Source of the DNA: Laetiporus sulphureus 93-53
Lineage: Eukaryota; Basidiomycota; Agaricomycetes; Polyporales; Laetiporaceae
Direction of reading: 5' to 3'
DNA length: 64,000 nt
Assembly: GCF_001632365.1 (NCBI RefSeq)
Contig: NW_024468599.1
Span: forward strand, 3,774 to 67,773
Part shown: positions 3,450-56,240 of the stretch, in pieces
Layout: every line of letters starts with the position of its first letter
Position numbering within the stretch: position 1 is the first letter of the stretch
Translations under genes and position numbers: made by a program
Notes under the pieces: model-generated
The model's input: the letters and a program-made list of their open reading frames with translations, nothing else
What the model was told of the DNA's origin: nothing
Database searches by the model: none

Positions 3450-6400
3450 TTATGGCTTGCGAGCCCTCAAGGCCTGATTCTTCTCGTGAAGCTGCTGCAA
3501 CAGCGCGATCATCCACTCAAGTTGTGTACTGGTTTCGGAAGGCTCAATGGTGGCTGGCAAAGAGCTAAATGGCTCTGACTTTATGATCGCAGCTTTAAAA
3601 GAGCCCTTTGCATGAGCCTTGCCTTTTGACGAGTGTGGCTTGAGAACCTTAGTAGATGGAACAACAATGGTGCTGGCGTGGGCATGTTGCATCATGATGT
3701 TATCTGGGTCGGAGTCGTTGAAGTGAGGACACTTGAGAGGCCTGTTGAATTGGCCTAGTGAAGTCGTTAGCAAGGAAGTAATGATGCCGAAAGGGACATA
3801 CCACATGGCAGCAGAGGAATCACCAACTTATGACGAGAAGGCCCAGCAGTGCCCTTCTCTTGCTTGATGGTAACAACCTCAGGTGTGCCTTCAGCATCGG
3901 ACTCGGCATTGGGCTCAGGCGTGTCAGGCAAGGTATGGACCGAACCTGGAGGGAGGTCAGTTAGCCAGGAACAAAACTGAAAGAGGGGAGGCCTACGAAG
4001 GTGTGGGGCCAGGGCAATCACAGTTTCATATTCATCAATCGGTGTGTCCAGCAGGAGCTCGAGCTCCATGGAATAATTGCTGCTGGCAGTGTTCGCATCG
4101 TGCATCTGCTCATCATACATCTGGCATCTTGGGCAGTGGCCAGTCCTTCTGATGGTACAGCTTTTTTGGTGAAAGCCATCCATCGGCATCATCAATGTTA
4201 GGGACTGTATCACTCATCCACCACTTGCAGGCCATGTGGTCATGGTAACACTTGCAGCATTTAGGACAGAACTCACTTAATGTGCAAGTGTGAGACACCT
4301 TGTCGGAAAGAAGGCAGTAGCAACACTGGGAAGAGGAATTAGCAATGGAAAAGTGTGGGCCAGGCAAGCACTTACCAAACAAGCGATAGACAGCTTCTGC
4401 CAAGCCAGGAGATACTCTGGAGGAAGGGAGTGATCATGAAAGGTATGCACAGGCATGCGCACATACTGGTCCTCCGAGTTCGTAGTTATTTTGGAAGCCT
4501 TGGTGAACTTGCGACCGTGACCCTTGCCCTTCTTCGGATGCACTGGCGAGAGGTTTAGAAGGTTTCCACTCATGAACTCGACCTCATCACTATTGCTGTC
4601 ATCCTCATCATTGCTGGAGACCTCAATAACCTCAGAGCCTTGTGCGGAAGGTGATTCAGTGACCACAGTAGCAAGTGGAGGATCAACTTTCATAGCCACA
4701 GCACCAGAGTCAGAAGGAGGGTTGATAGCAACTGGGTTTGTTGCACAGGCCTGGAACTCAAACTTTGGGACAGGAATACCAATAGCAGCAGGAGCCATGA
4801 CAGGTGCAGCTACTACAGAAGAAGAGGTCAGAGCAACAGAGAGAAAAGCATCATCAGTGCCGGTGGAAGCGGTCAGAGAGTCAGAGGCCATGACCTCCCC
4901 AGTATTAGAAGGCATGTGAGCAGAAGCCTCAGTCACCAGAGGGGGGCTCAGATCCTAGGAGAGTCGAAGGATCATGTTAACAAAAGATAGTGGATCACAG
5001 TCTGGTGCATGCACCTTGCTCGCTGAAAAGGCAGCAGCTCACTTGGGCGAGATCAACTCCTCACACCACGAAAGCCACGATGGCTGTACAAAGGCATCGA
5101 GATGTGCCTGAGCCTTGTGGCAAAACTGGGTGTAGCATGTTTGCGACACCATGTCCAAGAAGGTGCAAAGATCATGCTAGAAATGAAGAGAGTTATCCGG
5201 TTGCGAGTACAACGGCGTGATCACTTACCACAGCAGAAAGGAACTTGCGTATGAGAAACTCGAAGTCCATGGCTGGGTCGAGGGGCTCTGCCTCACGAAA
5301 TGCCTCCCAAGCAGAATAAACGATACCCATGACGGCGTCCTTTGGGTCCGCTGCCTATGTGTCAAGGACAGAAGTTAGCAATGCAAAAAGCCAAAGGTAG
5401 GAAGACAGGTGCACCTTGCGAGGAGAGGCAACTGGAGTTGCAGGATGCTGAGAAGATGAAGGCATAGTGGGGTGACCCATCATCGAGCTGAAAGAATGAG
5501 GTAGAGGGAGAGGACAGTTAGGCGCCATCGGACACTGAAGACAATTTCGAACTAGCCATGCTCGGACATGCAAACATGTCATTAAAACCTCATGGTATCA
5601 TCCTCTACCATGTGGTAGAGCCAGTTGGCTTTCTCAGGGAGCCAGTTCAAGTGACTCAGATGGAACTTCTTATGTGGGACCAAAATCAAGCCAACTCTGA
5701 TTGAGGCTACCGAAACAATGGATCTACAGCATGAAGTCAGAGACGAACACATTTGGACTACTGTACATGAGAAAGCGGAGTACATGAAGGACAAATTGAG
5801 ATGGTTCTAGGCTACGTGACTTTCCCATTCACAGCCAGGAAGGTCTTCAAGAACTGGAGATGATCGCTAATGTGGGTCGCCTCCACAACCAGTCGTGCAC
5901 GCTCCTGAGTATAGATCTTGATCAATAGGGCATTGGGAATGGCCAGCCCACGAACCTCACTAAGAATCCTCTTGGTCTCTGCAAGCGATTTGGCATCTGC
6001 AATCATGAAAGGGATAAAGTCAGTATTGCAGCCTTTGTGATCAAGAAGACGAAAAGCTTACTAGAGGGAGGCTAGACAAATGAGCACTTGAGGTGCGACA
6101 CTCAGCAGTGAATGCAAGCCTGCCCACTGTGGTCAGAAGGCATGATCATGCAGTCCCTGTCCACCAAGCACTTGAAACACTGGTGGCCAGAATGTAAGCA
6201 ATGAGCTGAATATGAAGAAAGCGACCAGGCGCACCTTGGTATGCGGCCATGGCTTGCCGAAGCTCAGAAACACGATCTGCACACACTTTGGGAGAGCGTG
6301 GATGGTGACGTAGTACTCGTGCAGTGTATCTGACTCAGAAGACTTGATGGTGACCACGGACGACATCGTACTCATGACAGACGCAGAACGCAACTGCACC

Positions 6401-7442
6401 CTCGGAGTCGCTGCAACAACTTCAGGTTCACGCTTGACCACATCCTGAAGAATCTGCGCTATAGCAAGAGACATGGCAGAAGGAGGAGGAACATGTCAGC
6501 TATCATAGTCTATCCACCAGCAGCTAATCGGGATGGTCTGCCCAGGGAATGTACGGTCGCGCTGATCCACAAAAATGTCGTTCGCCGTGTATGCCATTTT
6601 AAAGTGATCACAAATATGATTGTGACCTTCAGGGAACTTGGCAAAATTGTCACAGTCTGCAGCCTCAATAATCTCTCGCATAATCTCAGTCATCGCAGCA
6701 GGAGAACGAATTGGGGCAGTGGTCCCAACAGCATCGGAATAACCTCTCAGGGAGGAAGGGACCACTGCTGGGATCCAATCGAAGTCAGGGCTCACGTTCA
6801 GCATGAGCCAGTCATACACTGAATTGACCTCATGCAGCAAACTTTTGGCACGGTCTGGATAGTCACAGGTCATGCATAACTGGAAGGCCACAGCATTGAC
6901 TGGCAGAAGGCAGATCGCAACATGGAATACTCACCTCATAAGTGAAAAATGACGTGGCCCAGCCCTGTCAGACCAAGGCATGAGCATCGGGAGTGGGTGA
7001 TGTGAACACAAGATTATCCAGGTGCTGCAGTAGTGAAATGCAAGCACTGTCAATGGGGTAGACACTGCAAGCTCGAGCAGCGAGGCTGAAGACACCATTG
7101 ACATGGGACATAGCAGTGAAGGACCAGGGAACTGACAGCGAGGGCATGCTATCTAAAGTACAGAAGCCCGATGGACTGAGGATGATCCAAATCTCAGAAT
7201 GGGGGAGGTGATATGCACTGAGATATTCTGCGATCAGAAAAACACCAGAAACTGTGTTCGACTATCGCACAATCGGATAGCGGGTCACTGCAATTCGAAA
7301 AGACAAACACTGAGCTGGAACAGTCCAGAGTGGGTGAAGAAGACTTTACTGACAGCCTGAGGAAACAGAACTGTGTGAAGGGGTCAGAAGGTGAAACATG
7401 AGGTGCAGAAATGATGAGCAAGCCATGAGGAAGCATAGCCAA
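3450..7442 (-). pseudogene. Antisense multi-exon gene of Ty3 element A (putative Zn2Cys6-like nuclear protein)
   Basis: Minus-strand coding segments run from inside the 3' LTR (about 7442) to 3450, convergent with pol. Pieces seen: N-terminal block crossing the LTR edge (7194-7442), a block 6496-6891, block 6133-6474, a cysteine cluster (about 6084-6179; CX2CX5CX11CX2CX6C), a Ser/Thr/Pro-rich block with acidic SSNDEDD and basic KKGKG stretches (4400-4936), a second cluster (4227-4325; CX2CX9CX8CX2CX6C), and a C-terminal heptad-like end (3450-3530). Introns with GT/AG ends on the minus strand: 4326-4375 (GTAAGT..CCCAG) and 3946-3996 (GTAGGC..CTCCAG with a CTAAC-type branch point). Joining exons across 4326-4375 keeps the frame. 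Several TGA stops and frameshifts disable this copy. Function is inferred only from the cysteine pattern. Confidence 0.6.
7196..7208 (+). promoter_or_regulatory. Polypurine tract of element A
   Basis: AGAATGGGGGAGG lies directly against the LTR start TGATAT, the position where the plus-strand primer of LTR retrotransposons is found. The same tract precedes the 3' LTRs of B and D. It fixes this LTR as the 3' LTR of element A. Confidence 0.8.
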
Positions 7443-7687
7443 TTACGAGGTGCAGTGCGAGAAGTGAAACATGACCAATTAGGCAACTCAGAAATGAGCA
7501 AGTGTGCTAATGGAAGATAGGGTAGCGGACCGACGGACCCTGACAGGGCCAGACTTCCAGTTCCCTGACTGTATGATACAGAGAAAGAACAGGGACGAGC
7601 TTTGCGACAGGTTTTTCAATGGATCGGAAACACAATGTATGATCAGAAACATGTTTCAGCAACTCAGCTGGCTCATTTCTGATCCAC

Positions 7688-7694
7688 TATATAA
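7688..7694 (+). promoter_or_regulatory. LTR TATA box (sense promoter)
   Basis: TATATAA is conserved in all four LTRs (also 26397-26403, 43843-43849, 56309-56315) and lies downstream of the antisense first exon. It probably directs sense transcription of gag-pol. In this LTR the MITE at 7710 sits just downstream of the box. Confidence 0.6.
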
Positions 7695-7709
7695 TCTACA
7701 CTATACATA

Positions 7710-7953
7710 CACGGCAGACATGATGCGATTTATCAATGTGGGAAATTATGTGTGAATGTCAACTGATTTCTTACACATGTGACAAATATTTGCAACCATG
7801 GCATTTTATGTTGAAAATGTTTCACATTGGCTGTGAATGTGCACTATTTACTGGTTAAATGCTAAATTGGCAAAGCTTTGCCAAAAATGTAAGACATCAG
7901 CTGACATTCCCACACGATTTTCTACATTTATAAATCGCATCACATCTGCTGTG
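7710..7953. mobile_element. CACTA-like MITE in the LTR
   Basis: A 244-bp insertion present only in this LTR; the other LTRs read straight from TGTACATA to GAATAATAAG. Its termini form an imperfect inverted repeat of about 24 bp beginning CACGGCAGACATGATGCG on the left and CACAGCAGATGTGATGCG on the right (read in reverse). The flanks share ATA, a possible 3-bp target duplication. CAC ends plus a 3-bp duplication suggest the CACTA/EnSpm group. It has no coding capacity. Confidence 0.65.
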
Positions 7954-8790
7954 ATAGAAATAATAAGAGAGTTTTACATGGAGTTTCCCCACACAGCAGT
8001 GCTCAGTTCTCATCTTGTCTATGCTAGGACATCATGCCCGACTACGTCTACGTCTATTGCGATCATGTTCTACATCTCTGGGATTCTCGACACCAAGAGA
8101 GGCAGCACTCTCAGCAGTGGCCTCTAGCTCGACTCAGGTTTCAGCCAGATAAGACACGTTATCATGTTCTCGTATCTCATGCCATCGCATTTTGCTTGCA
8201 CGCCACCAGTCACGAGTCTCAAACCAGGATTCCGTCTCTATTGGATCCCGTAGCCTAGCTAGTGCTCAGGAGTTCATTGTTAGTGCTCGTTCCCATTCGG
8301 AGACATCCAGGGATTCATTGTTGACACTCATTCCAGTCAGAAGTGCTCAGGGCTTCATTGTCGATGCTTATCCCAGCTTGGAGACAGTTAGGGGTTGCTC
8401 GTCGGTGCTTGACCAGCACTTTCCAGATATAGAAGGTTCTTGTGCCCCAGCCCAGACCTTCAGCCACCACAGTTCACGAGTACAGAAGTTGCCAATCGCA
8501 TTTGACACCCACACACCTCCGCATTCCAGCTTTCGACTGTTTCCCAGTTGGAGGCATCCATACAGTCGAGTCCCACACTCACCGATCCAGAACATTTGAC
8601 AATCTGACTCCATTTCAAGCATCACAGCTGAACGACTCACAGCTGCCCGTCGCTGTGTTATCATCTGAAGTTTCCTGTGACCATAGCCCAAAGGGAATGC
8701 AGACAGACAGAGCCCCAGTTCGCCTTCCACCAGTAGGGGTTTGGTTAGGAGTGCTGCTCATGGCCAGAACACGGTTGAGCATATCATTTC

Positions 8791-15777: not shown

Positions 15778-15807
15778 GGTGGTTACGGAACAAGAAGGAT
15801 TGATTGT

Positions 15808-21285: not shown

Positions 21286-24036
21286 TCACGACTTGTGAGC
21301 CCTCAAGGCACAGTTCTCCCTGAGGAGCTGTTGTGAAAGCTCGATCATCCGCTCGCATTGCATACTAGCTGCAGAGGGCTCGATGACAGCTGTCGAAGCA
21401 TGAATCGGCTCTGACTTCACAGTCGTGGCCTTGGAGGAGCCCTTTTGATGAGTGCAGCTTGAGGACCTTGGTTGGTGCAACAACAATGGTGCCGGCATGG
21501 CATGCTGTGTCATGATGTCATCAGGATTGGAGTTATCAAAGCGAGGACACTTGGGAGGCCTGTCGAAATGATCTAAAGAAACCATTATCAAAGAAGTAAT
21601 GATGCAGAAAGGAACATACCGTGCAGTGGTGGAGGAATCACCAGCTTATGACAAGAAGGCCCAGTGGTGCCCTTCTCTTGCTTGACGGTCACAGCCTCGG
21701 GTGCACCTTCAGCGTCGGACTCAACATCAGGCTCGGGCATGTCGGGTAAGGTATGGGCTGGACCTGGAGGGAGGTCAGTTAGCCAGGAACATAATGAGAA
21801 AGGAGGGAGGCCTATGAAGGCATGGGGCCGGAGCAATCACAGTCTCATATTCGTCAATCAGTGTGTCTAGCAGAAGCTCGAGCTCTGTGGTGTAATCGCT
21901 GCTGGCAGTGTTCACATCACACATCTGCTCGTCGTAGTCACCCTGGTGACTGGAAGCCTTCACAATCACTGAAGCATCCAGCATCTTGGGCAGTTGCCAA
22001 TCCTTCTGATGGTACAGCTTCTTTAGCGAAAGCCATCTGTCGGCATCGTCAATGTCAGGGACCGTATCGCGCATCCACCACTTGCAGGCCTTGTGGTCAT
22101 GGTGACATTTGCAGCATTTAGGATGGAATTTGCTTAGCATGCAAGTACGAGACACCTTCTCAGACAGAAGGCAATAGCAACACTGTAGAAAGGAGTTAGC
22201 GATGGAAAAGGGTGGGCCAGGCAAGCACTTACCAAGCAAGCGATAGACAGCTTCTGCCAAGCTGGAAGATACTCTGCGGGAAGGGAGCGATCACGAAAGG
22301 TGCACACAGGCATGCACACATACTGGTCCTCTGAGGTCGTAGTTATTTTAGAAGCTTTGATAGACTTGCGACCACAACCCTTGCCCTTCTTCGGATGCAC
22401 TGGAGACAAGTTGGGGATCGTGCCACCCATGAACTTGACCTCATCACTATCGCTATTGTCCTAATCATTGCTGGAGAGCTCGATGGTCTCAGAGCCTTGC
22501 ACAGAGGGAGGTTTATTGAACACGAAAGTGAGTAGAGGATCAACCTCCATGGCTGCAAGATCTGAGTCGAAAGGAGGGTCAATAGCAACTGGGTTGGCCA
22601 CACGAGCCTGAAACTCAAATGTAGGAACAGGATCACCAAGAGCAGCAGAAGCTGTGACAGGCATGGCCACCACAGAAAAAGAGGCCAGAGCAACTGAGAG
22701 GAGAGTATCGTTGGTGCCATTGGAAGCGGTCAGAGAGTTGGAGGCCACGACCTCCCCAGTATTGGAAGGAGTATGCGCAGAAGCCTCAGTCACTGGAGGG
22801 GGGCTCAGTTCCTAGAGAGAGTTGAAGGATCATGTTAGTAGAGGACAAGAGATCACAGTCCAGCACATGCACCTTGTTTGCCGAGAAGGCAGCAGCCCGC
22901 TCAGGTGAGATCAACTCTGTGCATCACGATAGCCATGATGGTTGAACAAAGGAGTCGAGATGTGCCTGGGCTTTTTGGCAAAACTGGGTATAGCGCGTTT
23001 GTGACACTGAGTCTGAGAAGGCATGAAGATCATGCTAGAGGAGGGAGCAAGTTAGCCAGCTGCGAGTACGATGGAGCGTTCACTTACCAGGGCAGAAAGG
23101 AACTTGCATATCAGGAATTCGAAATCCACAGCTGGATTGAGAGGCTCTGCTCACACAATGCCTCCCAAGTGAAGTAAACGACGCCCATGACAGCGTCCTT
23201 TAAGTCTGCTGCCTAGATGTCAAGGAAAGGCATTAGCGCTGTGAGAAGCCAAAAGGTTTGAAAGACAGGTGTATCTTGCATGGAGAAGTGACTGGAGTCG
23301 CAGGACATTGAGAGGACAACGGAGTAGCAGGGTCACCCATCGAGGAGCTAAGAGATCAAGGTAGAGGAAGAGGCTAGTTGGGCACCATTGCAGAAAGTTT
23401 TGGACTGGCCAAGCTCGGACATGCGAATGCGTCATTAAAACCTCACGGTATCATCCTCTACCACGTGGTAGAGCCAGTTGGCTTTCTGAGGAAGCCAGTT
23501 AGAGTGACTCAGACGGGACTTCTATTGCAGGACCAAAATGCGAGCCAACCCTGATCGAAGCCACACAAAACAATGGATTCATGGCACAGCGCCAGAGATG
23601 AACACAGTCAGACTATTGTATATGAGAAAGTGGAGTACACAAAAGACAAATCGAGGCAGTTCTAGACTACGTGGCTTTCCTATTCGCAGCCAGGAAGGTT
23701 TTCCAGAACTGAAGATGCTCGCTAATGTGAGTCACCTCCACTACCAGTCACGTGTGCTCCTGTGTATAGATCTCGACTAGCAGAGTGCTGGGAACGGCCA
23801 GTCCACGAATCTTGCTAAGAATCTGCTCGGTATCAACAAGCAATTTGGTGCCTATGATCACAAAAGGAGTGGAGTCAGGACGGCAGCATTTCTGATCAAG
23901 AAAAAGAAGATGTACTGGAGGAAGGTGTGACACTCAGCAGTGAATGCAAGCCTGCCCACCATGCTCGGAAGGCATAATCATGCAGTCGCCGTCCATCAAG
24001 CACTTAGAGCACTGGTGGCAGAAACATAAGCGACGC

Positions 24037-24950
24037 TGTCACAGTATTAAGTGGCACCTTTCTTTTTGCACCAATAAAGTCATCATTCGGCAACCACAAG
24101 TGGTAATTTGGACGCCAACCTTCATATTGGTTTCACAAAGTGAATACTTAGACAAACAGCACAATACCACCACATACATCGTGGATATGACTGTGTCTAC
24201 CACATGACCACCAAGCGCCCATGATTCAGCCACCCAGTCACGTGACACTGGCCACTTGCCCTATTCAGAAGTTATCAGGCGTTGATCACATGACAACAGG
24301 CCACTTGCCCAGAATGAAACTCTTTGGCCCACAATAGGCTTACCTGTGCTCATTGGACCATCAAGCTAGCAAGCACCCAATTCGCTGCTCAATAGCAGCA
24401 CCAACTACATGGCTGCCAAATAGTAGCACCAGCATTAGAATATGCGCTATGGCAGAACCCCCATTGGCCACTCAATAAGTGGCACCACTTCAGCCACTCA
24501 AATAGTGCACCACCTTCAGGCAATTATCTCATTGGGTAAAGTAGGATTACCTTGACGTATCCATGGCCTTTATAGATAGTTGCTATAGCGAAGTCCAGAA
24601 CCATTACTGGTTTTGGCAATATGTTCACATGTAGACAGGACAGGACCTCAGTAAGTACACCATAGTTAGGGTACCCAGGGTCCACCACGACATGTATATA
24701 AGCACATGAGGATCTAAGGAAAGACCTTAGATTCATTCAACTATTGTATGCGGCCAGCAGGCCAGCTCCCCCCTTTTACCTTTTGTGCAAGGCCATGCAT
24801 TGGGGCTTTGCCTTGATTGCTGGTTGTATGCCACTGTGCGCCATCCTCAGCCTAGCCCTTGTGGCAGGCTTTTATGTTATGGATTTATTTGTGCAGGTCA
24901 CACAAGCAGACTTGCCTTTAATTGGGTTAAGTGCTTTGTGCTTTGTGACA
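24037..24950. mobile_element. Solo LTR (TGTCACAG..TTTGTGACA) in element B
   Basis: A 914-bp insertion absent from A and D. It begins TGTCACAG, ends TGTGACA and is flanked by the 5-bp duplication GACGC (24032-24036 and 24951-24955). It contains a TATATAAG box at about 24695, a GTCACGTGAC palindrome at 24237-24246 and no coding sequence. It interrupts the antisense gene beside cysteine cluster 1. Confidence 0.85.
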
Positions 24951-25923
24951 GACGCGGAGGAGGTGAAAAGCGAATGAACGTACCTTGATATGCGGCCACG
25001 GCTTTCCGAAACTCAAGAACATGATCTGCATATGCTTTGAGAGGGTGTGGATGGCAGCATAGTACTCGCGCAGTGTATCTGACTCAGAGGACTTGGTGGT
25101 GACCATGGACACTGAATGTCACTGAACTCGCAGAGTCGCTGCAGCAACTTCAGGTTCATGCTTGACCACATCCTGAAGAATCTCTGCCATAGCACGAGAC
25201 ATAGTGGAAGAAGAAGGAACATGTCAGCTATCATAATCTATCCACCAGCAGCCAATTAGGATGGTCTGCCCAAGGAATGTACGGTCGCGTCATTCCACGA
25301 AAACATCGTTTGTTGTGTACGCCATTAGAAAGTGATCGCAAGTAAGGTCATGACCTTCAGGGAACTTGTCAAAATCACCACGATCTGCAGCCTCAATAAT
25401 CTCCTGCATGATCTCAGTCATCGCAGCAGGAGAACAAATCAGGTCAGCGGTGCCGACAGCCTCAGAATAACCTCTCAGGGTGGAGGGGACCACTGCTGGG
25501 ATCCAATCAAAGTCGGGGCTCGCATTCAGCATGAGCCAGTCATACACTGAATTGACCTCATGCAGCAAACTCTTGGCATGGTCTGGATAGTCACGGGTCA
25601 TGCATAACTGGAAGGCCACAGCATTGACTGGCAGAAGGCAGATCGCAACACGAAATACTCACCTCGTAAGTGAAAAATGACGTGGCCCAGCCCTGCCAGA
25701 CCAAGGCATGAGCATCGGGAGTGGGTGATGTGAACACAAGATTATCCAGGTGCTGCAGTAGTAAAATGCAAGCACCGTCAATGGGGTAGACACTGCGAGT
25801 GTGAGCAGCGAGGCTGAAGACACCGTCGACGTGGGACATAGTGGTGAAGGACTGGAAAACTGACAGTGAGGTTGTGCTATCTAAAGTATGCAAGCCCAAT
25901 GGACTGAGGACAGTCCAGATCTC

Positions 25924-25936
25924 AGAACGGGGGAGG
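25924..25936 (+). promoter_or_regulatory. Polypurine tract of element B
   Basis: AGAACGGGGGAGG directly precedes the 3' LTR start. The antisense frame reads through it. Confidence 0.8.
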
Positions 25937-27273
25937 TGATACGTACTGAGATATTCTGTGATCAGAAAATGCCAGAAACTGTGTCTGACTATCACACAAT
26001 CGGATAGCGAGTCGCCACGATCTGAAAAGACAAACACCGAGCCAGAACAGTCCAGAGTGGGCAAAGAAGACTTTACTGACAGCCTGGGAACATGGAACTG
26101 CATAAAGGAGTCAGAAGGTGAACATGAGGCACGGAAATGACGAGCGAGCCACGAGAAAGCATAGCTGATTACAAGGTACAGCGCGAGAGTGAAACACGAC
26201 CAGTTAGGCAACTTGGAAATGAACAAGTGCACTAACTGAACAGAAGATAGGGTAGCAGACCAATGAACCCTGACAGGGCCAGACTTCCAGTTCCCCGACT
26301 GTATGATGTTGAGAGGGGGCAGGGACGAGCTTTGTGACAGGTTTCAATGGATCAGAAACGCATTTCAGCGACTCAGCTGGCTCATTTCTGATCCACTATA
26401 TAATCTACACTGTACATAGGAATAATAAGAGAGTTTTACATGGAGTTTCCCCATGCAGCAGTGCTCAGTTCTCATCTTGTCTATGCTAGGATGTTGTGCC
26501 CGACTATGTCTACGTCTATTGCGATCACATTCTACATCTCTGGTATTCTCGACACCAAGAGAGGCAGCACTCTCAGCAGTGGCCTCTAGCTCAACTCGGG
26601 TTTCAGCCAGATAAGTCATGTTATCGTGTTTTCGTATCTCATGCCATTGCATTTTGCTCACACGCCACCAGTCACAAGTCTCAAACCAGGATTCCATAGC
26701 CTCGCTAGTGCTCAGGAGTTCATCATCGGTGCTCGTTCCCATTCGGAGACACCCAGTGATTCATTGGCGATGCTCATTCCAGTCAGAAGTGCTCAGGGCT
26801 TCGTTGTCGGCACTTATCCCAGCTCGAAGACAGTTAGGGGTTGCTCATTGGCGCTTGACCCAGTTTGGAGGCAGTTAGGGATTGCTTGTCGGTGCTTGAC
26901 CAGCACTTTTCAGATATAGAAGATCCTCGTGCCCCAGCCCAGACCTTCAGCCACCACAGTTCATGAGTACGAAAGTCACCAATTGCATTCTACACCCACA
27001 CACCCTCACATTCCAGCTTTTGACTGTTTCCTGGTCAGAGGCATCCATACAGTCGAGTCTGACACTCACCGATCCAGAACCTTTGACAATCTGACTCCGT
27101 TTCAAGCATCACAGCTGAATGACTCATGGCTGCCCATCACTGCGTTATCATCTGAAGTTTCCTGTGACTGTAGCCCAAAGGGACTGCAGATGGACAGAGC
27201 CCCAGTTCACCTTCCACCAGTAGGGGTTTGGTTAGGAGTGCTGCTCATGGCCAGGACATGGTTGAGCATATCA
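25937..27273 (+). mobile_element. 3' LTR of Ty3 element B
   Basis: Starts TGATAC and ends ATATCA, 1337 bp. Sense TATA box TATATAA at 26397-26403. Shares with the D 3' LTR an extra segment of roughly 40 bp near 26845-26885 (an imperfect repeat around CAGTTAGGG..TTGC) that the two 5' LTRs lack. The next base belongs to a copia element, exactly as after the D 3' LTR. Confidence 0.85.
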
Positions 27274-29576
27274 GCGGGAGCAGAGGCTGATGCCGGTGCT
27301 GGGACAGGTGCATCACCGGGAACGAGTGGAACTTCTCCATTGTGTGATGTTGGATCAGGATTGGGTACAGGTGGTGAAATAGGGGCAGGATGAGCAGCTG
27401 CAGTGGAGACAGTAGGCTCCTGACCATAGATGTCAGTGAATTTACAGGTGCGGTGACCCTTTACCTCCTCAAAGACCACATCGTGTGACCTAATGATCCC
27501 TCCCCTTGGACCAGCAGTGGGATCCCACAAGCGAAAGTTTGCATTGTCAGTATAACCCATGAGGATACAGCAGCATGACTTAGGATCGAGCTTGGTCTGG
27601 GTGTCATCGGTAAGTCTAGCTCATGCTACTGAACCAAATGCATGCAGGTGCACTACGTTGGGCACGCATCCATGACAATGTTCATATGAAGTGCAGCCTT
27701 TCTGCCTTGCGGAGGAAGTAAGTGACTTCAAGTAGACAGTGATATGGAAAGCCTTCACCCACAAATGGTTCAGGATGCCTGCATTATACAGCATAGCGTG
27801 AGCATGGTCAGCAAGGGCGCAATGGCTGTGCTCACTTATGCCATTCTTCTGGGGTGTATAGGGCACAGTCAGTTCTGCAACAATTCTGTTGTCCTGGGAG
27901 TAAGCTGCCCATGCTCCATTATTGAACTCAGTGTCATTGTCAAAGTGGATGTGGTGCAGCTTGCAACCTGTCTGTCACTCAGCCATGTGATGGAAAGTTT
28001 GAAAATGGTGTAATGTTTCATCCATTGACTTGGTGGTGAGTGGGTATACCATGGTATAGGACGATGTGTCATCATCGATTGTCAAAAGGTATCGAGCACC
28101 ACCTAGCGAAGCAATGGGAAATGATCCCATCAAATCCACATAGACTCATTCAAGGAGCTCCATCTTGACTTCAGATGCACAAAATGGTGCGTGGGTTTGC
28201 TTGCCCTTAAGACAATCCTCACACTTCCCAGCAGGACGGTCACCCTTCATGATCATACCTGACACCACATTGGATCGTGCCATCGTCTGTACAGTCTGTT
28301 CACTAATATGACCCAGTCTGCGATGCCAATTTGCGATGTCAGCCACAGAACTGTGGCCATCAACCGCTAGTGCATGATGATCATAAGTGAGGTATGCGCG
28401 AGGGAGATTTGGCAAGGTAGTGAAGTCGACCTTAGTGAACTCCACCTCATACAGGTCACCCGATGTCAAGATGCAGGTGAACATTGTCTTCCCTGCTTTG
28501 CCCATCACGTTCATCATCCCCGCTGCACCAGAGAATGAATATTCAGCATGGTCAAGGCATGGCATCGATATCAGATTTGCCATGAGATCGGGAGTATGGA
28601 TGGTGTTCTGAAATATAATAATGGATGTACATCCATCTATCATCATCTTGATGGCAACATTGCCTACTCCTACGATGCTAAAGAACCTTTCTTGGCTCCA
28701 TTTCCCAGCATCAGAGTGAGCTGCATATAGTTGACGAAACTTGCATGATCCACAAAGCAGTGGTGAGTAGCACCGGTGTCAGCATAGGCCCTCAGGGTTC
28801 CATGGCTGATGGGCTCGACATGTGGTAGATTGACGAGGTGGGTGCTGGCCAGGAATATATGATAATCATATTCTGATACATGCTCATCACTCATGTTCGC
28901 GGAACGTGCGGTCGCTGTCGTAAGGTGAGCTTGTGGCGGAATCTGAGGACTAGATGCAGTAGCCTCAGATTTCACTGCCGTCGATGTCACTGCAGCCTGT
29001 TTGGCTGCCAATGCTTTCACTGCAGGTGAGCCCTTCTTAGGGATAGGCTTTGTCCACCCTGCTGGCTGCTGACCCTCTCGTCCTCTGCCTTCACAGAAAC
29101 AATTGGCTTGCAGATGGCCCTTTGCACCACACGGGCACCACTCACATATCTGTATGGGTTTTGCACATGTCATGAACACACTGGTGGTTTGCGATGCAAC
29201 TTGGTCTGTTCCCATCAGGTTAAGTGGGTTACCGGCCTGTATGCGGTCATTCTCGAAGACAGCAAGAATCGACTCCATGACAACATCTGGGTTGATTTGC
29301 AAGAGGAGCGATGTACATGTGGATTGGAGCGATGGAAGGTTTGACATTGAGTTGCACATAATGATTGCGAACCTAGCAGCATTGAACGTAGATCCCAGGT
29401 CACGTGCGACATGTCAACGGTGGTGAAGTTCTATGAAATGATCCTGGAGGTCGGTCCCTTCAGTCCACATGCATACTTTGAGGTAATCCTCAGCATTCAT
29501 GATCGTCAATGCCGTCTTGTGCTCCCGCTTCTGCACTAAGGCAGTCCATACTTCATGAGCTGTTTTCCCCTCATCC
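27274..29576 (-). pseudogene. Ty1/copia gag-pol fragment (left copy), truncated at both ends
   Basis: Minus-strand order: Gag with a CX2CX4..C zinc-knuckle-like WCPCGAKGHLQANC (about 29120), protease ADTGATHHCF (about 28770), gag-pre-integrase WHRRLGHISEQT (about 28320), and integrase with a C-terminal DPTAGPRGGIIRSHDVVF block (about 27500). It is cut at 27274 by the gypsy LTR before RT and at 29577 by the Helitron fragment before the Gag start. A frameshift near 28690 is shared with the right copy. Confidence 0.85.
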
Positions 29577-41835: not shown

Positions 41836-43405
41836 TGAAAGAATCATCACCCTAAGTACACTGAGAACAATGCTCACCTCAATGCAAGCCCACTAGACCT
41901 GGCAGAAGTAACAGAGAAACGAGATGCAGAACCGATGCCGACGAGACTCAACGAGAAGAAACTTTTTGGCACTTAGGGCAACAGCAAACACCGGATATCT
42001 GCCTTGGGGCCCTCAGCCACTGCACTTCTCAATCATTGACATGTCATCCAAAATCCAATCGAAGATGCCAAAATGCTTATGTAACTCTGAAATTGGGTAC
42101 TTCACTGTGAGGGTGGTAATTTGAAAGCTATGCTATGAGCAAGTCAGTCTTATGCTGTGAATAGCTACATGGTACATGTGCCTCACATGACATATATAGA
42201 ATCCGAGTCATTGCTCATGTTCATCGTGCTTTTATGTATTGTCTATGATTTTATCAAATGTTTGGGAGCCTAGGAGCGTGAGTTGCATCATTGTCGCAGT
42301 TGCATTGCAGGGCCAATGATAGTGCCTGTCACGAATCACTCAGGAATATCCTCTGAACACAATTTAATGTGTCGGCACCAACATGATTCTGACTAGACAT
42401 GAATTACCTCTAACATCCAGAACCAACTTGAATAGGTCGAGCGTGATATGTCAACAAGTAGGTGGTGGCAGGATAATGGCTTTCACAAGCCAACTACAAG
42501 CAGGCCTGAAGTCCCATGTCAGATGATCATTGACCTGAATTGCTAGCCAGTCTGTATGCACTCTGGTTAAGGAGTGGACCTCAGGTGAGGTCATCGGAAG
42601 TATGATAGAACTGGGAATCTACTCCCAGTTAGCCCTAGTATATATACAAGCAGGGTAGGACCCTGATATACCATCTATCCTACTTACTATTATAATTACA
42701 TCGAGTACTAGGATCCCTGATATCGGGGGTGGACCCACAGATCGAGGACAGATGGGAATCTTATCTTTAGTACTCAATGGCGAGGTGCTGCACCAGATAC
42801 CTTTTAATGGTGCTGCTACATTGTGTTGACCTAACCACAGGTATGACCTGAATATAACTGCATGCATCTATTGGACCATGCCTTGCGGCATGAGTACCCT
42901 TAACTGAGGAATCCCAAGATATCTCAATCTGGGGTTCCGACCAATCAATACTTATCCCCTTCTGTTGGTGAAACACCTGACAGTGTTCCGGCTACTAACT
43001 TGATATTGGCCAAGACTAATACAGGTGTGGAGTTACCCCACACTTCTTGGCTTCTATCTTATCTAGTTAATCTGGATCCAAGACTTTTGGCTTAGTCTGG
43101 CAACTTCGTTACTCAGTTGGTCCAGACTTGAGTCATTGATCGGACCATAGTTCCGATCTGTGGATTTGAGCTGCATGTGATGTGCACTTTAGACATTCTG
43201 GACTCATGACATAGTAGGTGTATGTGATGTGTATGCTGAGTGATGCATGTGAATGATCCAGATGTTCTGTCTTTTAATATAGCTCTGGAATGGCCCAGAC
43301 TTAATGGTGCAACCCTATTGAGGATCCTATTCAGGGATCAGGTTGTCACATATGCAAAGTCTATTGAGGAGCCGTTCCATCATATCTTCGGGGTATTGAT
43401 AGTAT
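41836..43405. other. Unassigned intergenic DNA before element D
   Basis: No convincing gene. A TATATATAC box near 42640 follows a perfect 8-bp stem (AACTGGGA..TCCCAGTT, about 42609-42630), an arrangement seen in LTR promoters, but I could not find paired ends. Several short degenerate frames on the minus strand (42619-42976) are unrecognised. Confidence 0.4.
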
Positions 43406-44712
43406 TGATACGCACTGAGATATTCTGCGATCGAAAAATGCCAGAAACTGCGTCTGACTATCACACAATCAGATAGCGAGTCGCCGTGACCCAGAAAGAC
43501 AAACACTGAGCCAGAACAGTCCAGAGTGGGCAAAAAGACTTTACTGACAGCCTGGGAACATGGAACTGTGTGAAGGGTCAGAAGGTGAAACATGAGGTGC
43601 AGAAATGATGAGCGAGCCACGAGGAAGTGTAGCCGATTATGAGGTGCAGTGCCAGAAGCAGAACATGACCAGTTAGGCAACTCAGAAACAAGCAAGTGCA
43701 CTAACTGAACAGAAGACAAGGTAGCAGACCGACAAATCCTGGCAGGGCCAGACTTCATTTCCCCAACTGTATGGTATGAAGAGGAGCAGGAGCGAGCTTT
43801 GTGAGATGTTTCGGCGACTCAGCTAGCTCATTTTCAACCCACTATATAATTCACATTGTACATAGAAAAAACAAGAAGTTTTCCAGGGAGTTTCCCCACC
43901 AAGCAGCGCTCAGCTCAGGTCTCATCTACGCTAAGGCATCGTGCTCGACTACGTCTACATCTATTGTGATCACATTCTACATCTCTGGGATTCTCGACAC
44001 TGAGAGAGGCAGCACTCTCACCAGTGGCCTCTAGCTCGACTCAGGTTTCAGCCAGATAAGTCATGTTATTGTGTTCTTGTATCTCACGCTATCACATTTT
44101 GCTCACACGCCACCAGTCATGAGTCTCAAACCAGGATTCTGTCCCCATTGGATCTTGTAGCCTCGCTAGCGCCCATGAGTTCATTGTCAGTGCTCGTTCC
44201 CATTCAGAGACATCCAGAGGTTCATTGTCGATGCTCGTTTCAGTCAGAAGTGCTCAGGGCTTCGTCGTCGGTGCTTATTCCAGCTCGAGGACAGTTAGAG
44301 ATTGCTCGTTGGTGCTTGACCAGCACTTTTCAGATATAGAAGGTCCTCGTGCCTCAGCTCAGACCTTCAGCCACCACAGTTCATGAGTACGGAAGTTGCC
44401 AATCGCATTCTACACCCACACACCCCCGCATTCCAGCTTTTGACTGTTTTCCAGTCAGAGGCATCCATACAGTCGAGTCCGACACTCACCGATTCAGAAC
44501 CTTTGACAATCTGACTCTGTTTCAAGCATCACAGCTGAATGACTCACCGCCGCCCGTCGCTGCATTATCATCTGAAGTTTCCTGTTACCATAGCCCAAAG
44601 GGACTGCAAACAGACAGAGCCCCAGTTCACCTTCCACCAGTAGGGGTTTGGTTAGGAGCACTGCTCACAGCCAGGAGCGCTGCTCATGGCCAGGACGCGG
44701 TTGAGCATATCA
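43406..44712 (+). mobile_element. 5' LTR of Ty3 element D
   Basis: Starts TGATAC, ends TATCA (ATATCA at 44707-44712), 1307 bp. No polypurine tract precedes it and the primer-binding-site candidate follows, so it is a genuine 5' LTR. TATA box at 43843-43849. A copy of the antisense first exon, disconnected from the rest of that gene, is readable on its minus strand (43327-43758). The flanking AGTAT does not match the base pairs after the D 3' LTR (GCGGG). Confidence 0.85.
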
Positions 44713-44716
44713 TTTC

Positions 44717-44733
44717 TGGAGCCCACCGCGAGG
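44717..44733 (+). promoter_or_regulatory. Candidate tRNA primer-binding site of element D
   Basis: TGGAGCCCACCGCGAGG, identical to 8791-8807 and at the same distance from the LTR. Confidence 0.6.
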
Positions 44734-46891
44734 GGTGGAGAGGATTCAAAGTTTCACAGCACCGAGTCATCAGCCTTACAATCAGAGATCGAAGAAGGAG
44801 TTTGGTATCCCCTTGAAACAGAGTCAGGATTACCACAATAGGTGAAACATCAGATGAAGAAGTCTTCTCATCATTCAATCAAAGACTCAGGCGACTACAC
44901 GAGTTTCAGAGGGCCAGATTCGAGTGAGCAAAAGAAGGCCGACCACACTTAGCCAATTTTCGACCATCTCCATATTCGAAACACATTCCTCAGCTTCGCA
45001 ATCAACATCACCAGCTTCTAGAACCCCCAGTCCACTTAGTTTGCTTACTCCACTATTGCACCATCTGTCCAAGTCTTCTACAGTAGAAGCACAGTCGAAA
45101 CACATCTCCGAGGCTTTGTCGCAAGAAGTTCTGCTTAGGACCCTTCTAGACAAGCTAGAAGCAGCCTTCACAGCTGAACAGGCATCGAATTCCATCCAAA
45201 ACTCCACTTAAACACTTAATCTACCGACCACCACAGCTACAGTCACTATGAGCACCATAATCACTAATCAGATGCCATTTCGTGGTGATTGATCGGCACC
45301 CACGTTCGATCCCGATCAGCCAAGAACACTCTTTCACTTCTTCAATGACCTAGAAATCCTATTTACATGTTGCCAAGTAAACACTGAAGCCGAGAAGAAG
45401 CTTTGGATGAAACACTATCTTAATATAGACGTTGTCGACCTCGTTGAGTCACTTCCAGAATATACTGATCGAGCGAAAACATATGTCAATCTGCGACAAG
45501 CCATCCAGGTGCTGTATGCAGATGCAGATACAGAGCAAAAGTGGGAAGTGCGAGACATGGACCTCTTAGTTGGAGAGCGAGCCCAACTGGAGATTCAGAT
45601 GATCACAGAACTATCATCGAGAGTTCCTAGCCATCACCTCATTTCTCATAGGCAAGACTCGCATTTTGCAGTCAGAACACAATCATGCATTCATTCGAGG
45701 TTTCCCACCGGAGTTATGAAGTCAGATTTCGCAGCGCCTGCAGTTGAAGCAGCCAGACCATTACCCAGATGATCCCTACTCAGTAAACGATGTCTATGAG
45801 GCAGCAAAGTTTGTGTTGCATGGCACTAGTGCAGGGCTGACCACTGTAAAGCTGACTACAACTACTTCGACTAGCAGCGCATCAGTGATAAAGAGCAAGG
45901 ATATCTTGTTGCTTATTGAAAGCTTGGTCAAGTCAGTTCAAATGCTCACAGAAGCTGTGACTGGAGGAATTGCGAAGCATGGGAGTCAAGCTGCAACTGT
46001 GAGCAGACCACTAGTCACAAACGGAAATCTGAGCAGATTTTGCCACTATTGTGGAGAAGCCGGAGGCATGATCAGAACATGCAAGCACGTCAAGGAGGAC
46101 ATTAAGAGCAGCAAGTGCATGTGCAATGCAGCTGGAAAAGTTGTCCTTCCAAATGGCACCTTCATCCCTTGCACAATTCCAGGCATCACAATTTGCAATC
46201 AGATTTATGGGTGGCACAGATGGAACCTGACTCCAGTCACGGCATCAGTTTCAGTGGCGAATCTATTTGAGGTCTCAGAAGACAAAGCCAGCTCATTCTC
46301 ACTAGACGCAGAGGATAGAATCGAAGCATTGGAGCAGGAGTTGTTCAATCTGAAGTGATTGCGACCAGTCTTTGATGGAGTTTATATGCCACTGAGGTGA
46401 CTGGCAGGATTAGCCGCAAAGCCAGCGCAATCTGAGAAGGCACCTGAACAGCAGTTGCAACCTCAGGTGGAGCCAGAGAAGGCCACTGAGAGCATGCTGA
46501 GTATGTCAGTTCCAGCAGTTGCAGATTCAGTGCCAGAGCATCCTTTCCAATCAGCTCGAGATGTGTTGTATGTCCCACCCAACACTCGCAATTTCGATCA
46601 AGCCCCAAAGCCAGGAGCATGAAATGCAGCCTATCACAATGCACCACCAGTCTACCAGCCGAAGCTTGCGACTACAGTTTTCGAGCAATCGATGAAGTCA
46701 TGGGGAGTTGCTGTCGATATCATCAGATGTGCGCAACAAGTATCGCAAAGCATGCACACCAAAATGAGTAGTACCTCCAAGTGTGACTGGAATGGTGATG
46801 ATCTTCAAAAATGCAGAAGACAGCAGTTCCACGATCGGACAGGAGAAAGAGCTCACCTGTTGAGGGGAGCCTTTAGCAGCGACAGGCTCAG
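44734..46891 (+). pseudogene. Ty3 element D leader, gag and gag-protease linker
   Basis: Gag frame open from about 44890 without a clear ATG; a coding start near 44924 would need GTG. Capsid-like segments at about 45290-45600 and a continuous 204-codon block 45744-46358 with the zinc knuckle lacking His (46041-46082). Frames change near 45610 and stop codons occur (for example TAA at about 45208). Unlike B, gag is not split by a LINE. After 46358 the linker runs to the solo LTR at 46892. Confidence 0.75.
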
Positions 46892-47550
46892 TGTCACAGC
46901 ACGCCGATGACAAAGATAGACAACCAAATGTAGAGTCCCCTTGAGGGCCTCCTGGCTAAGAGCCTACAGTGACGAGCTGTGGCGATATGACGTGCCCACT
47001 GACGAGGCCTAGTAGCTGATTGCAGAGCAAGACTTACTGGTGAGGCTAGAGGTGCTATCACACAAGTGAGGATGCGATGAAATGTATAGCACACTGAGAG
47101 TGTCTGGTAAGACCCCTCTGTGATGGTAGTGGAGGACGAAGGAGAATAAGACTGAGGTCTCCTCCTCGTCGTGCTGGTCCTTATATACATGATTGCTATG
47201 CTACTGTACAGTACTATCTAAGCGAGTCACATGCTATTCTACTGGTCAGTGCTACAATCGTACGACATGTCTCAATTATCCTGATTGGCTGCCTAATAAT
47301 AACCCACAGAGACGGAGCTCCTCTTGAGCACGTAATATGGCGTCATGGCGATTGCAACATATGACACCATGCCGAGGGGCTCGGTGTCACGTGACAATGC
47401 CGAGAGAGATCCAAGGTCATGTGACTAGATGCCTCGTTATCTTATCTTGTTAGGTCATGTGACTTCTTGTGCGACGAGCAATGATGAAAAATGATATGCT
47501 CCTTAATACCGTTTGTTCCTATAATGACTTTGTCAGGTAAAACTGTGACA
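46892..47550. mobile_element. Solo LTR (TGTCACAG..CTGTGACA) in element D
   Basis: A 659-bp insertion between the gag linker and protease, absent at the same point in B (16800). Flanked by the 5-bp duplication CTCAG (46887-46891 and 47551-47555). Carries TATATACA near 47181, and three palindromes GTCAYGTGAC (47386-47395, 47416-47425, 47454-47463). Its last 26 bases resemble those at 92-117. Confidence 0.85.
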
Positions 47551-47555
47551 CTCAG

Positions 47556-48100
47556 TCATTTCTGATCTGTATAATGCCTACCTGAAGCACATTCACAATG
47601 AAGAAGAGCCAGAACAGTTGACAGTCGCAAAAGACTCGCATGCGTTGTGATTGATAGATGCACTTATCGACAACAAGGAATGAGTACAGGTGATCCTAGA
47701 TTCAGGATGCCAGATTGTCGCAATGTCCGAAGATGTCTGCCTCTCGCTGGGGCTTATTTACGATCCAACAATAAAGCTCAACATGCAGTCTGCAAACAGA
47801 GAAGTTGACCAGTTGCTCGAACTGGTTCGCAATGTACTGTTCCAAGTCGGAGATATTGTCCTCTACTTGTAGGTCCATGTCATTCATGCAGCCACATACG
47901 ATATTCTTCTAGGATGACCATTCGATGTGCTCACCAAGAGCGTGGTGCACAATTTCATTGACGAGAATCAGACAGTTACAATTGTATGTCCCAACACAGG
48001 AAGAGTCACAATGATACCCACTATACCAAGAGGACCACCACGAGTCAGGGCACAGCACTTGTGATCGAAGGATCCAGGTTTTCACTAATGGAAGATATGA
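47556..48100 (+). pseudogene. Element D aspartic protease domain
   Basis: Same active-site segment as element B (ILDSGCQIVAMS, about 47690-47730) and YDILLG end near 47912. A TAG near 47869 and TGA near 47914 interrupt it. Confidence 0.75.
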
Positions 48101-51100: not shown

Positions 51101-51740
51101 TTTCTGGTCAGAAAGAGTCACAGTTAGAAGATGCATGGGTTGTTCGCCCTACTTCACCATCATGGGCACTCATCCTGTCTTACTGCTGGACATAGTCAAG
51201 GCAACATATATGATTCCAGCACCAGTCGGGATGGTGACAATGACCGACCTGATCGCGAGTCGAGCAGAAGCACTACAAAAGCGCTGAGAACAAGTCATGA
51301 GGATCCACAACGCAGTCTACGAGGCCAGGAGAAAAGCAGTGAGGCGATTCAAGCGAGTCCACAAGAATGTGATCAAGGATTTCGATTTCAAGCATGGAGA
51401 CCTAGTCTTGGTTCAGCATATGCAGATTGAGAAAGCACTCAATCGAAAAATGTGACTGCGATATATAGGACCATATATTGTGTTGTTTCACAATTGGGGA
51501 GGAGCCTACATGCTCTGTGAGTTAGATGGAGCTGTACTGGACTGACCGATCACAGCATTCAGGGTGGTACCATTCACAGCAAGGAAGAAATGTTGGATGC
51601 ATTGGAAGCCAGATTGAAGGAGATGCATCAGTCGGACAACCAAGGAGAAGAGGAACTGGATAAAGAACAAAAAGATGAGGAGTCAGGGGATGAAGACAAA
51701 GGACTGAAAGACCAGTACGACGCAAACGAGTCAGAATAGA
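48101..51740 (+). pseudogene. Element D pol remnant: RT, RNase H, integrase
   Basis: Closest relative of the element A pol. The RT box is Tyr-Val-Asp-Asn (49168-49179), the same loss of a catalytic Asp as in A. RNase H spans 49645-49965. The integrase zinc region lies at about 50550-50670, catalytic Asp near 50738, and the second site reads Asp-Asn-His instead of Asp-Asn-Gly near 50910; Glu is near 51014. The acidic tail ends at TAG 51736-51738. Multiple TGA codons interrupt it. Confidence 0.85.
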
Positions 51741-52046
51741 CAAGTATAGGGATTCAAACTAATAATTCAATCGTATATAGGCAAGGACTCAGCTAGGGAC
51801 TCAAGAGACTCAAGAACTCGAACAAGACAACACTATTTTGTGACATCTCACTTAATATTTCATTCAGAAAAGCTTGCGCAAGGTTTTCGGCACCCAGGTT
51901 TATTCAAGCAAACTAACTAGTACATTGCCCTATGTGCACAGAGGGAGAGATCACGATAGAGATATGAAGAACCATGCAGACAGCCCGCTTTGAGTCACCC
52001 CAGCACATACCCATCGTGCACCAATGGCATCATGGCTTGTGAGCCC

Positions 52047-55000: not shown

Positions 55001-56240
55001 AGAACGCAACTGCACCCTCGGAGTCACTGCAACAACTTCAGGTTCATGCTTGACCACATCCTGAAGAATTTCTGCCATAGCAAGAGACATGGCAGAAGGA
55101 GGAGGAACATGTCAGCTATCATAGTCTATCCACCAGCAGCCAATCAGAATGGTCTGCCCAGGGAATGTACGGTCGCACCGATCCATGAAAATGTCGTTCA
55201 CCATGTACGCCATTAAAAAGTGATCACAAATATGGTTGTGACCTTCAGGAAACTTGGCAAAATTGTCACAGTCTGCAGCCTCGATGATCTCTCGCATAAT
55301 CTCAGTCATCGCAGCAGGAGAACATATCGGGGCAGCAGTCCCAACAGCATTGGAATAACCTCTCAGGGAGGAAGGGACCACTGCTGAGATCCAATCGAAG
55401 TCAGGGCTCGTGTTCAGCATGAGCCAGTCATACACTGAATTGACCTCATGCAGCAAACTCTTGGCACAGTCTGGATAGTCACAGGTCATGCGTAACTGGA
55501 AGGCCGCAGCATTGACTGGCAGAAGGCAGATCGCAACACAGAATACTCACCTCATAAGTGAAAAATGACATGGCCCAGCCCTGCCAGACCAAAGCATGAG
55601 CATCAGGAGTGGGCGATGTGAACACAAGATTATCCAGGTGCTGCAGTAGTGAAATGCAAGCACCGTCAATGGGGTAGACACTGCGAGCTCAAGCACCGAG
55701 GCTGAAGACACCGTCGACATGGGACATAGCAGTGAAGGACCGGGGAACTGACAGCGAGGGCATGCTATCTAAAGTACACAAGCCCGATGGACCGAGGATG
55801 ATCCAAATCTCAGAATGGGGGAGGTGATATGCACCGAGATATTCTGTGATCAGAAAAACACCAGAAACTGTGTCCGACTATGGCACAATCGGATAGCGGG
55901 TCACTGCAATTCGAAAAGACAAACACTGAGCCAAAACAGTCCAGAGTGGGTGAAGAAGACTTTACTGACAGCCTGAGGAAACAGAACTGTGTGAAGGGGT
56001 CAGAAGGTGAAACATGAGGTGTGGAAATGATGAGCAAGCCATGAGAAAGCGTAGCTGATTACGAGATGCAGTGCGAGAAGTGGAACATGACCAATTAGGC
56101 AACTCAGAAATGAGCAAGTGTGCTAATGGAACAAAAGATAGGGTAACGGACCGACGGACCCTGACAGGGCCGGACTTCCAGTTCCCTGACTGTATGATAT
56201 AGAGAGGGGACAGGGACGAGCTTTGCGACAGGTTTGTCAA
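52047..56240 (-). pseudogene. Antisense multi-exon gene of Ty3 element D
   Basis: Same layout as in A and B, convergent with pol. First exon on the LTR minus strand (to 56240), then block 55112-55489, block 54749-55090, cysteine cluster 1 (54700-54795), the Ser/Pro block with acidic and basic stretches (52894-53553), cluster 2 (52844-52942), and a C-terminal block ending with a heptad-like Leu/Gln stretch (52047-52110). The intron between block 52894-53553 and cluster 2 is conserved (GTAAGT..CCCAG). The next intron has lost its donor (GT to AT). An in-frame TGA after 55112 occurs in all three copies. A frameshift breaks the first exon near 55980. Confidence 0.62.
55812..55824 (+). promoter_or_regulatory. 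Polypurine tract of element D
   Basis: AGAATGGGGGAGG immediately before the 3' LTR. Confidence 0.8.

What the first reader, a model, noticed from the sequence alone, without database searches (positions are those of the whole stretch)
21286..26232. Ty3/gypsy family carrying a spliced gene on its antisense strand
Seen: in three copies (3450-7442, 21286-26232, 52047-56240) the 4-5 kb between pol and the 3' LTR codes on the minus strand, with GT-AG introns readable only on that strand (for example 25608-25662 and 4326-4375, which join frames). Known: retrotransposon genomic RNA is the sense strand, so antisense introns are not removed during transposition. Inference: the family carries and mobilises an antisense passenger or regulatory gene, making it about 13 kb. 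Antisense ORFs are known in some plant Ty3 elements and antisense genes driven from the 3' LTR in some retroviruses; I know of none with this protein in fungi.
Basis: partly seen in the sequence, partly recalled or inferred. Interest (0 to 1): 0.87.

Follow-up and report, generated by a model that had tools for sequence, protein, structure and literature searches.

The report
Retrotransposon with two spliced antisense genes
A family of jumping elements in the sulphur-shelf mushroom carries, on its back strand, two intron-containing genes that natural selection has maintained, probably to control the element itself; such back-strand genes are known in plants and one other fungus, but what they do is still an open question.

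Summary
The window is from Laetiporus sulphureus 93-53. The 13-14 kb Ty3/gypsy family has LTRs of about 1.3 kb. Between pol and the 3' LTR lie two minus-strand genes, G1 and G2, convergent with gag-pol. Between-clade dN/dS is 0.16-0.43 (G1) and 0.16-0.30 (G2); transversions alone show the same bias. Each protein has a six-cysteine cluster. An antisense homologue follows the integrase in 22 of 33 loci at 60% identity or more and 4 of 8 at 39-59%, so the block is old. No transcripts were available; protein searches found relatives only in this species. Antisense genes in this position are known (Grande, RIRE2, Retand; Boty brtn in a fungus). I found no report of two multi-intron cysteine-cluster genes of this sort in a basidiomycete. 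Best reading: nuclear regulators of the element. That function is inferred.

The parts
43405..57188 (+). Copy 3: element with both LTRs, gag, pol and antisense block (13.8 kb)
   Evidence: its two LTRs are 79.5% identical and its flanks show no matching target-site duplication
43405..44713 (+). 5' LTR of copy 3
55825..57188 (+). 3' LTR of copy 3; purine tract directly before it
25937..27276 (+). 3' LTR of copy 2; purine tract directly before it
7209..8787 (+). LTR shared by copies 1 and 2 (tandem), with about 245 bp (7710-7953) not matching the other LTRs
23667..25839 (-). G1 of copy 2, ATG to stop (contains a 943-bp insertion in intron I3)
   Evidence: overlapping model P0014
21286..23388 (-). 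G2 of copy 2, start to stop (start by homology to C5; this copy has in-frame stops)
25608..25662 (-).
23997..24983 (-). Intron I3 of G1, copy 2, enlarged by the insertion 24036-24978
23213..23274 (-). Intron I5 of G2, copy 2 (its donor is not GT in this copy)
23035..23087 (-). Intron I6 of G2, copy 2
22812..22872 (-). Intron I7 of G2, copy 2
22183..22232 (-). Intron I8 of G2, copy 2, directly before the first cysteine codon
21764..21814 (-). Intron I9 of G2, copy 2 (donor lost in this copy)
21573..21619 (-). Intron I10 of G2, copy 2 (approximate donor)
23456..23473 (.). 18-bp palindrome CTCTACCACGTGGTAGAG in the slowly evolving spacer between G1 and G2
5812..7111 (-). G1 of copy 1
3450..5535 (-).
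54428..55727 (-). G1 of copy 3
52030..54151 (-). G2 of copy 3; I8 is 52943-52992
50524..51541 (+). Integrase part of pol, copy 3
   Evidence: 82.5% identical DNA to the C5 piece that has an H2C2 domain

Best explanation
A Ty3/gypsy family of Laetiporus sulphureus with an old accessory block between pol and the 3' LTR: two antisense, intron-bearing genes, G1 and G2, that encode six-cysteine, probably zinc-binding proteins. Shown: architecture, strand, introns, and purifying selection while the lineages diverged. Inferred: minus-strand transcription starts in or beside the 3' LTR (the G1 ATG lies 98 bp inside the LTR edge in copy 2); G2 has its own start in the spacer or is read on from G1; the RNAs are spliced and the proteins act in the nucleus on DNA or chromatin, regulating the element. 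The introns survive transposition because the packaged RNA is the sense strand, where they are not introns. I put the structural part at about 0.95; the confidence given is for the whole, function included.
For: Codon periodicity with frame changes at conserved minus-strand introns in 15 copies. Between-clade dN/dS median 0.28 (G1) and 0.23 (G2), 73 pairs each; transversions are commonest at codon position 3; in-frame gag/pol pieces give mostly 0.12-0.30. In G2 the true frame holds 0-7 stop-containing codons per pair against 16-63 in the other five frames for the full-length pairs listed (11-29 in the pair with the truncated copy C2). Existing gene models on the same strand, in part with the same introns. 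Six cysteines kept in both proteins; basic and acidic stretches and a C-terminal helix in G2. Antisense homologues after pol in 22 of 33 and 4 of 8 integrase loci.
Against: No transcript, promoter, localisation or binding data. Pfam shows no known domain above cut-off and the structure models are poor (mean pLDDT 42.0 and 46.1). The I9 donor is lost in 7 of 15 copies, and C5 lacks GT at the I3 donor and AG at the aligned I1 acceptor. 13 of 39 antisense places have no integrase within 5 kb. G1 and G2 cluster spacings depart from the recalled Zn2Cys6 pattern.
Confidence: 0.45

Rival explanations
1. The proteins are cofactors of transposition (nucleic-acid chaperone, nuclear import of the pre-integration complex, or target-site tether), not regulators of transcription.
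For: Constraint near that of gag/pol and a cysteine cluster fit this too; nuclear import is one role discussed for plant antisense ORFs (PMC7264820).
Against: The genes are kept on a separate antisense, intron-bearing unit, which suits a product made apart from gag-pol; no direct evidence either way.
Confidence: 0.25
2. The antisense RNA itself is the active part: it pairs with the sense RNA and feeds RNA silencing or copy-number control; the protein matters less.
For: Convergent transcripts would overlap; antisense-RNA control is discussed for such elements (PMC7264820). CpG decay shows the copies were targets of host modification.
Against: Does not explain constraint on amino acids, conserved splice sites or conserved cysteines.
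Confidence: 0.1
3. A host gene (with introns) was captured once in antisense and has been carried as a neutral passenger.
For: Genes with introns are typical of the host; 13 of 39 antisense places lack a nearby integrase.
Against: Purifying selection between clades; the same place after pol in families whose integrases are 43-49% identical to the query. No host copy was identified, though the 13 stray places were not all examined.
Confidence: 0.06
4. The low dN/dS and periodicity are an artefact of CpG decay, or of coding on the plus strand.
For: CpG transitions are 1127 of 2052 differences in six within-clade pairs. The plus-strand frame that shares third positions also has a low ratio (0.23-0.53 in G2).
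Against: The bias remains in transversions. That plus-strand frame holds 16-31 stop-containing codons per G2 pair against 0-7. The intron signals exist on the minus strand.
Confidence: 0.02

Closest known systems
Antisense additional ORFs between pol and 3' LTR of plant Ty3/gypsy elements (maize Grande gene23, rice RIRE2, Silene Retand, bean PvRetro13)
   Same: Position, orientation, a long pol-to-LTR region, presence in many copies; a nuclear role is suggested for some (PMC7264820, parts 1 and 2 of 3 read; PMC11963269, passages)
   Different: Here a basidiomycete, two genes, eight or so introns conserved between clades, six-cysteine clusters; no Pfam match such as TRP28 was found
Boty-like elements of Botrytis cinerea with antisense gene brtn
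   Same: Fungal LTR retrotransposon with an additional antisense gene (named in PMC7264820, and PMC8365987, passages)
   Different: Cannot be compared: the original paper (Zhao et al. 2011) is not in the library and no brtn protein was compared
HTLV antisense genes (HBZ, APH-2)
   Same: Antisense gene driven from the 3' LTR side, nuclear product (PMC7264820 and PMC11963269; that HBZ mRNA is spliced is recalled)
   Different: No sequence relation was tested; host and element are unrelated; promoter and localisation are untested here
Fungal Zn(II)2Cys6 regulators
   Same: Six-cysteine cluster, and in the distant relative L033 the spacing x2, x6, x8, x2, x6 with one extra cysteine inside
   Different: G1 and G2 spacings depart from the recalled consensus; no Pfam Zn_clus match; L033 has a weak RING-type similarity instead

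Membership tests
Ty3/gypsy LTR retrotransposon | Two LTRs with short inverted ends and a purine tract before the 3' LTR | tested here: met
   TGATA...TATCA, purine tract
Ty3/gypsy LTR retrotransposon | RT, RNase H, then integrase in pol | tested here: met
   RNase H and H2C2 integrase domains in that order in the C5 copy; the RT piece before them had no Pfam match and was recognised by eye
Ty3/gypsy LTR retrotransposon | Target-site duplication | tested here: inconclusive
   C56 copy: 4 bp with one difference, empty site seen in other copies; window copy 3: flanks do not match; C5: left flank not fetched
Elements with antisense ORF between pol and 3' LTR (aORF-3R) | Conserved antisense coding region in this place in most copies | tested here: met
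   22 of 33 integrase loci at 60% or more, constraint on the proteins
Elements with antisense ORF between pol and 3' LTR (aORF-3R) | Antisense transcript | not testable with these tools
   No RNA data; conserved introns are indirect evidence
Zn(II)2Cys6 proteins | Spacing C-x2-C-x6-C-x5-12-C-x2-C-x6-8-C (recalled) | tested here: not met
   G1 has x5 and G2 has x9 in the second gap; the L033 relative meets it
Zn(II)2Cys6 proteins | Match to the Pfam family | tested here: not met
   None reported for P0001, P0002, P0012, P0014, P0022 or the L033 and L032 pieces
HBZ-like antisense regulators | Antisense promoter in the 3' LTR and a nuclear product | not testable with these tools
   G1 ATG is 98 bp from the LTR edge in copy 2; promoter and localisation unknown

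The most novel reading that the evidence does not exclude
Fungal Ty3 elements carry their own regulatory circuit: two cysteine-cluster, DNA-binding proteins, made from spliced antisense mRNAs that start at the 3' LTR, control the element's LTR. The module is ancient and spread over the lineage (shared by families whose integrases are only about 45% identical), a fungal counterpart of retroviral antisense regulators and of the plant antisense genes.
Probability: 0.35. Interest if true: 0.82.

Novelty: new variant of a known kind. Interest (0 to 1): 0.62.

Why it matters
What antisense genes in LTR retrotransposons do is open (PMC7264820). Introns readable only on the minus strand, and kept while whole element lineages diverged, are evidence from sequence alone that a spliced antisense mRNA was selected for. 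A multi-copy family with two such genes makes the question directly testable by RNA sequencing, localisation and DNA binding. If the proteins regulate the LTR, similar circuits exist in plants, fungi and retroviruses.

Tried and rejected
AlphaFold on two alignments of G2 proteins gave low confidence, so I ran no fold search. Pfam scans of the antisense proteins gave nothing above cut-off. A PDB sequence search gave nothing for G2 piece P0012 up to E = 1 and a weak RING-type hit, E = 0.009, for the L033 relative. A profile comparison of the G1 and G2 cysteine exons did not show them to be paralogues (hhalign probability 0.2), although both exons begin directly behind an intron. Passenger, CpG-artefact and plus-strand readings were tested (see rivals). 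Errors of mine: G1 exon 1 was one base out of frame (corrected); the piece 'gagA' was one base out of frame (ratio 0.78-1.18 in 7 comparisons, so it is only an out-of-frame control) and the script stopped with an error after the rows shown; the I10 donor was set two bases off. Paper searches for this arrangement in basidiomycetes found none, in an open-licence library and looking at the listed titles only.
Full report
Where it comes from. The window is C90:3774-67773 of a 38.6 Mb genome in 124 contigs. Protein records matching its genes are named LAESUDRAFT_* of Laetiporus sulphureus 93-53, and five contig lengths in those records equal lengths of C5, C51, C46, C85 and C42. The species belongs to Polyporales, Basidiomycota. 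The name is thus inferred, not given.

Architecture. Self-comparison shows three long copies and a fourth, partial stretch, which proves to be the 5' LTR and gag side of copy 3. Comparison with other copies fixes the LTR at about 1.3 kb, TGATA...TATCA, with a purine tract before the 3' LTR. In copy 2 the 3' LTR is 25937-27276, so the finding's right edge lies inside it. Copy 3 has two LTRs (43405-57188, LTRs 79.5% identical). Copies 1 and 2 are in tandem and share an LTR. Copies 2 and 3 are followed by the same copia sequence, and copy 3 shows no matching duplication at its ends, so recombination or segmental duplication has reshaped the array. Elsewhere C56:71001-84194 sits within another copy with a 4-bp duplication that differs by one base (LTRs 81.9% identical), and the C5 copy has LTRs 93.1% identical; the first bases and left flank of the C5 element were not fetched. 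RNase H and H2C2 integrase domains lie in that order in C5; its RT was recognised by eye only.

The antisense genes. I aligned the block of 15 copies; of the 18 DNA matches, C3 and two fragments were not included. Identities are 68.8-96.5%. Between-clade substitutions peak at every third base and the phase switches where the minus-strand frames switch. The switch points carry donors, CTAAC-type branch sites and acceptors on the minus strand. GT is kept in 14 of 15 (I5), 15 of 15 (I6), 14 of 14 (I7) and 14 of 14 (I8) copies, AG in 15 of 15, 15 of 15, 14 of 14 and 15 of 15. Against this, the I9 donor is lost in 7 of 15 copies by my count, and C5 lacks GT at the I3 donor and AG at the aligned I1 acceptor. 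G1 ends at a TAG present in all 15 copies. G2 begins about 280 bp further on and stops before the convergent end of pol. Existing gene models agree in part: P0022 equals G1 exons 1 and 2 of C85 over 274 aa and goes on past I3; P0001 is a G2 model of C5 that skips part of the cysteine exon; P0014-P0016, on an 86,899-base contig, match the window's copies. These are predictions, not transcripts.

Selection. Between clades dN/dS has median 0.28 (range 0.16-0.43) for G1 and 0.23 (0.16-0.30) for G2, 73 pairs each; within clades the median is 0.35 for both, 32 pairs each. In-frame gag/pol pieces against C5 gave 0.12-0.30, and once 0.05 where dS was 2.46. CpG decay is strong: 1127 of 2052 differences in six within-clade pairs. 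I therefore repeated the test with transversions: between-clade rates at codon positions 1, 2, 3 are 0.046, 0.039, 0.089 (G1) and 0.049, 0.024, 0.112 (G2), and 0.112 in intron interiors. So the minus-strand proteins were constrained while the lineages were active. The present copies are decaying: 0-5 in-frame stops per gene and copy, C28 being only partly covered for G1; C5, without stops, has frameshifts.

The proteins. Both have a cysteine cluster in an exon that begins directly behind an intron: G1 C-x2-C-x5-C-x11-C-x2-C-x6-C and G2 C-x2-C-x9-C-x8-C-x2-C-x6-C, each cysteine kept in 13-15 of 15 copies. A loose six-cysteine pattern occurs four times in the six-frame window, three of them in the G2 exons; 20 shuffles gave one hit in all. 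G2 also has a basic and an acidic stretch (by eye) and a C-terminal helix predicted with confidence in an otherwise poor model. Zinc binding and nuclear action are inferred.

How old and how general. With proteins of this block as queries, an antisense match lies within 5 kb after the integrase in 22 of 33 loci at 60% identity or more, 4 of 8 at 39-59% and 0 of 5 below. I entered the best 62 of the 119 integrase rows, merged to 46 loci, and 39 antisense places, one per locus; loci seen only with G1 were not entered. Of the 11 misses in the first class two are pieces of elements that do have it, one (C47) shows an antisense ORF and cluster by inspection, and eight were not examined. C9 ends with a G2-like antisense C-terminus by eye. 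A distant element (C35, integrase 45% identical) has a 528-aa antisense ORF whose cluster has the spacing x2, x6, x8, x2, x6, with one extra cysteine; it also resembles a RING finger weakly. 13 of 39 antisense places have no integrase within 5 kb and were mostly not examined. Protein searches found relatives only in L. sulphureus: 17, 20 and 4 proteins. The first two scored only the 7,994 and 7,989 candidates sharing most words, so distant relatives in other fungi are not excluded.

How it most likely works. The introns persist because the packaged RNA is the sense strand (established retrotransposon biology). Constraint and recurrence after pol argue for a benefit to the element. I think a nuclear regulator made from an antisense transcript of the 3' LTR side is most likely (0.45 with function included), a transposition cofactor next (0.25). 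The G1-G2 spacer changes more slowly than the introns (0.20, and 0.14 in its core, against 0.27-0.35) and holds an 18-bp palindrome with CACGTG, a candidate control site.

What is known. Antisense ORFs in this place are known in plants (PMC7264820, parts 1 and 2 of 3 read; PMC11963269, passages) and in Botrytis (Boty brtn, named in PMC7264820 and in passages of PMC8365987; the original paper not seen). The kind is known. The variant (two many-intron antisense genes with cysteine clusters, in a basidiomycete, across diverged families) I did not find in ten searches of an open-licence library, whose listings I saw in part.

Noticed in passing
window 23456-23473; also 5603-5620 and 54219-54236: An 18-bp palindrome CTCTACCACGTGGTAGAG (0, 1 and 2 mismatches) in the spacer between G1 and G2; chance expectation 0.01 in the window. 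The spacer core changes more slowly than introns.
   Followed up: partly
window 24036-24978: Insertion of about 943 bp in intron I3 of copy 2, absent from the other copies shown, with ends that look like a solo LTR and a 5-bp duplication by eye; related sequence in the C9 locus.
   Followed up: partly
window 27276-29583 and 57188-59495: Copia gag and integrase pieces on the minus strand directly beside the 3' LTRs of copies 2 and 3, suggesting that the gypsy element inserted in a copia element and that the junction was then duplicated.
   Followed up: partly
window about 10009-15807: LINE-like sequence (endonuclease and reverse transcriptase domains on the minus strand) interrupting the gag side of copy 2.
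   Followed up: no
window 40030-40882 and 40983-41835: Identical 853-bp direct repeats on either side of a run of 100 N, probably an assembly artefact at a gap.
   Followed up: no
window 30766-32671 and 62026-63997: A second duplicated stretch, 91-96% identical.
   Followed up: no
window 37391-39801: Two long plus-strand frames of 330 and 500 aa without a Pfam family above cut-off.
   Followed up: no
C5 copy (L027, L028) against window copy 3: Synonymous divergence is about 1.1 in G2 but about 0.5-0.75 in gag/pol pieces, so the block may have been exchanged between element lineages.
   Followed up: no
copies of the family (six within-clade pairs): CpG-type transitions are 1127 of 2052 differences, suggesting heavy cytosine methylation of the elements.
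   Followed up: partly
C56 locus, 72672-78278 and 84192-89800: Inverted stretches 97.5% identical although the LTRs of the element between them are 81.9% identical; looks like gene conversion between inverted copies.
   Followed up: no
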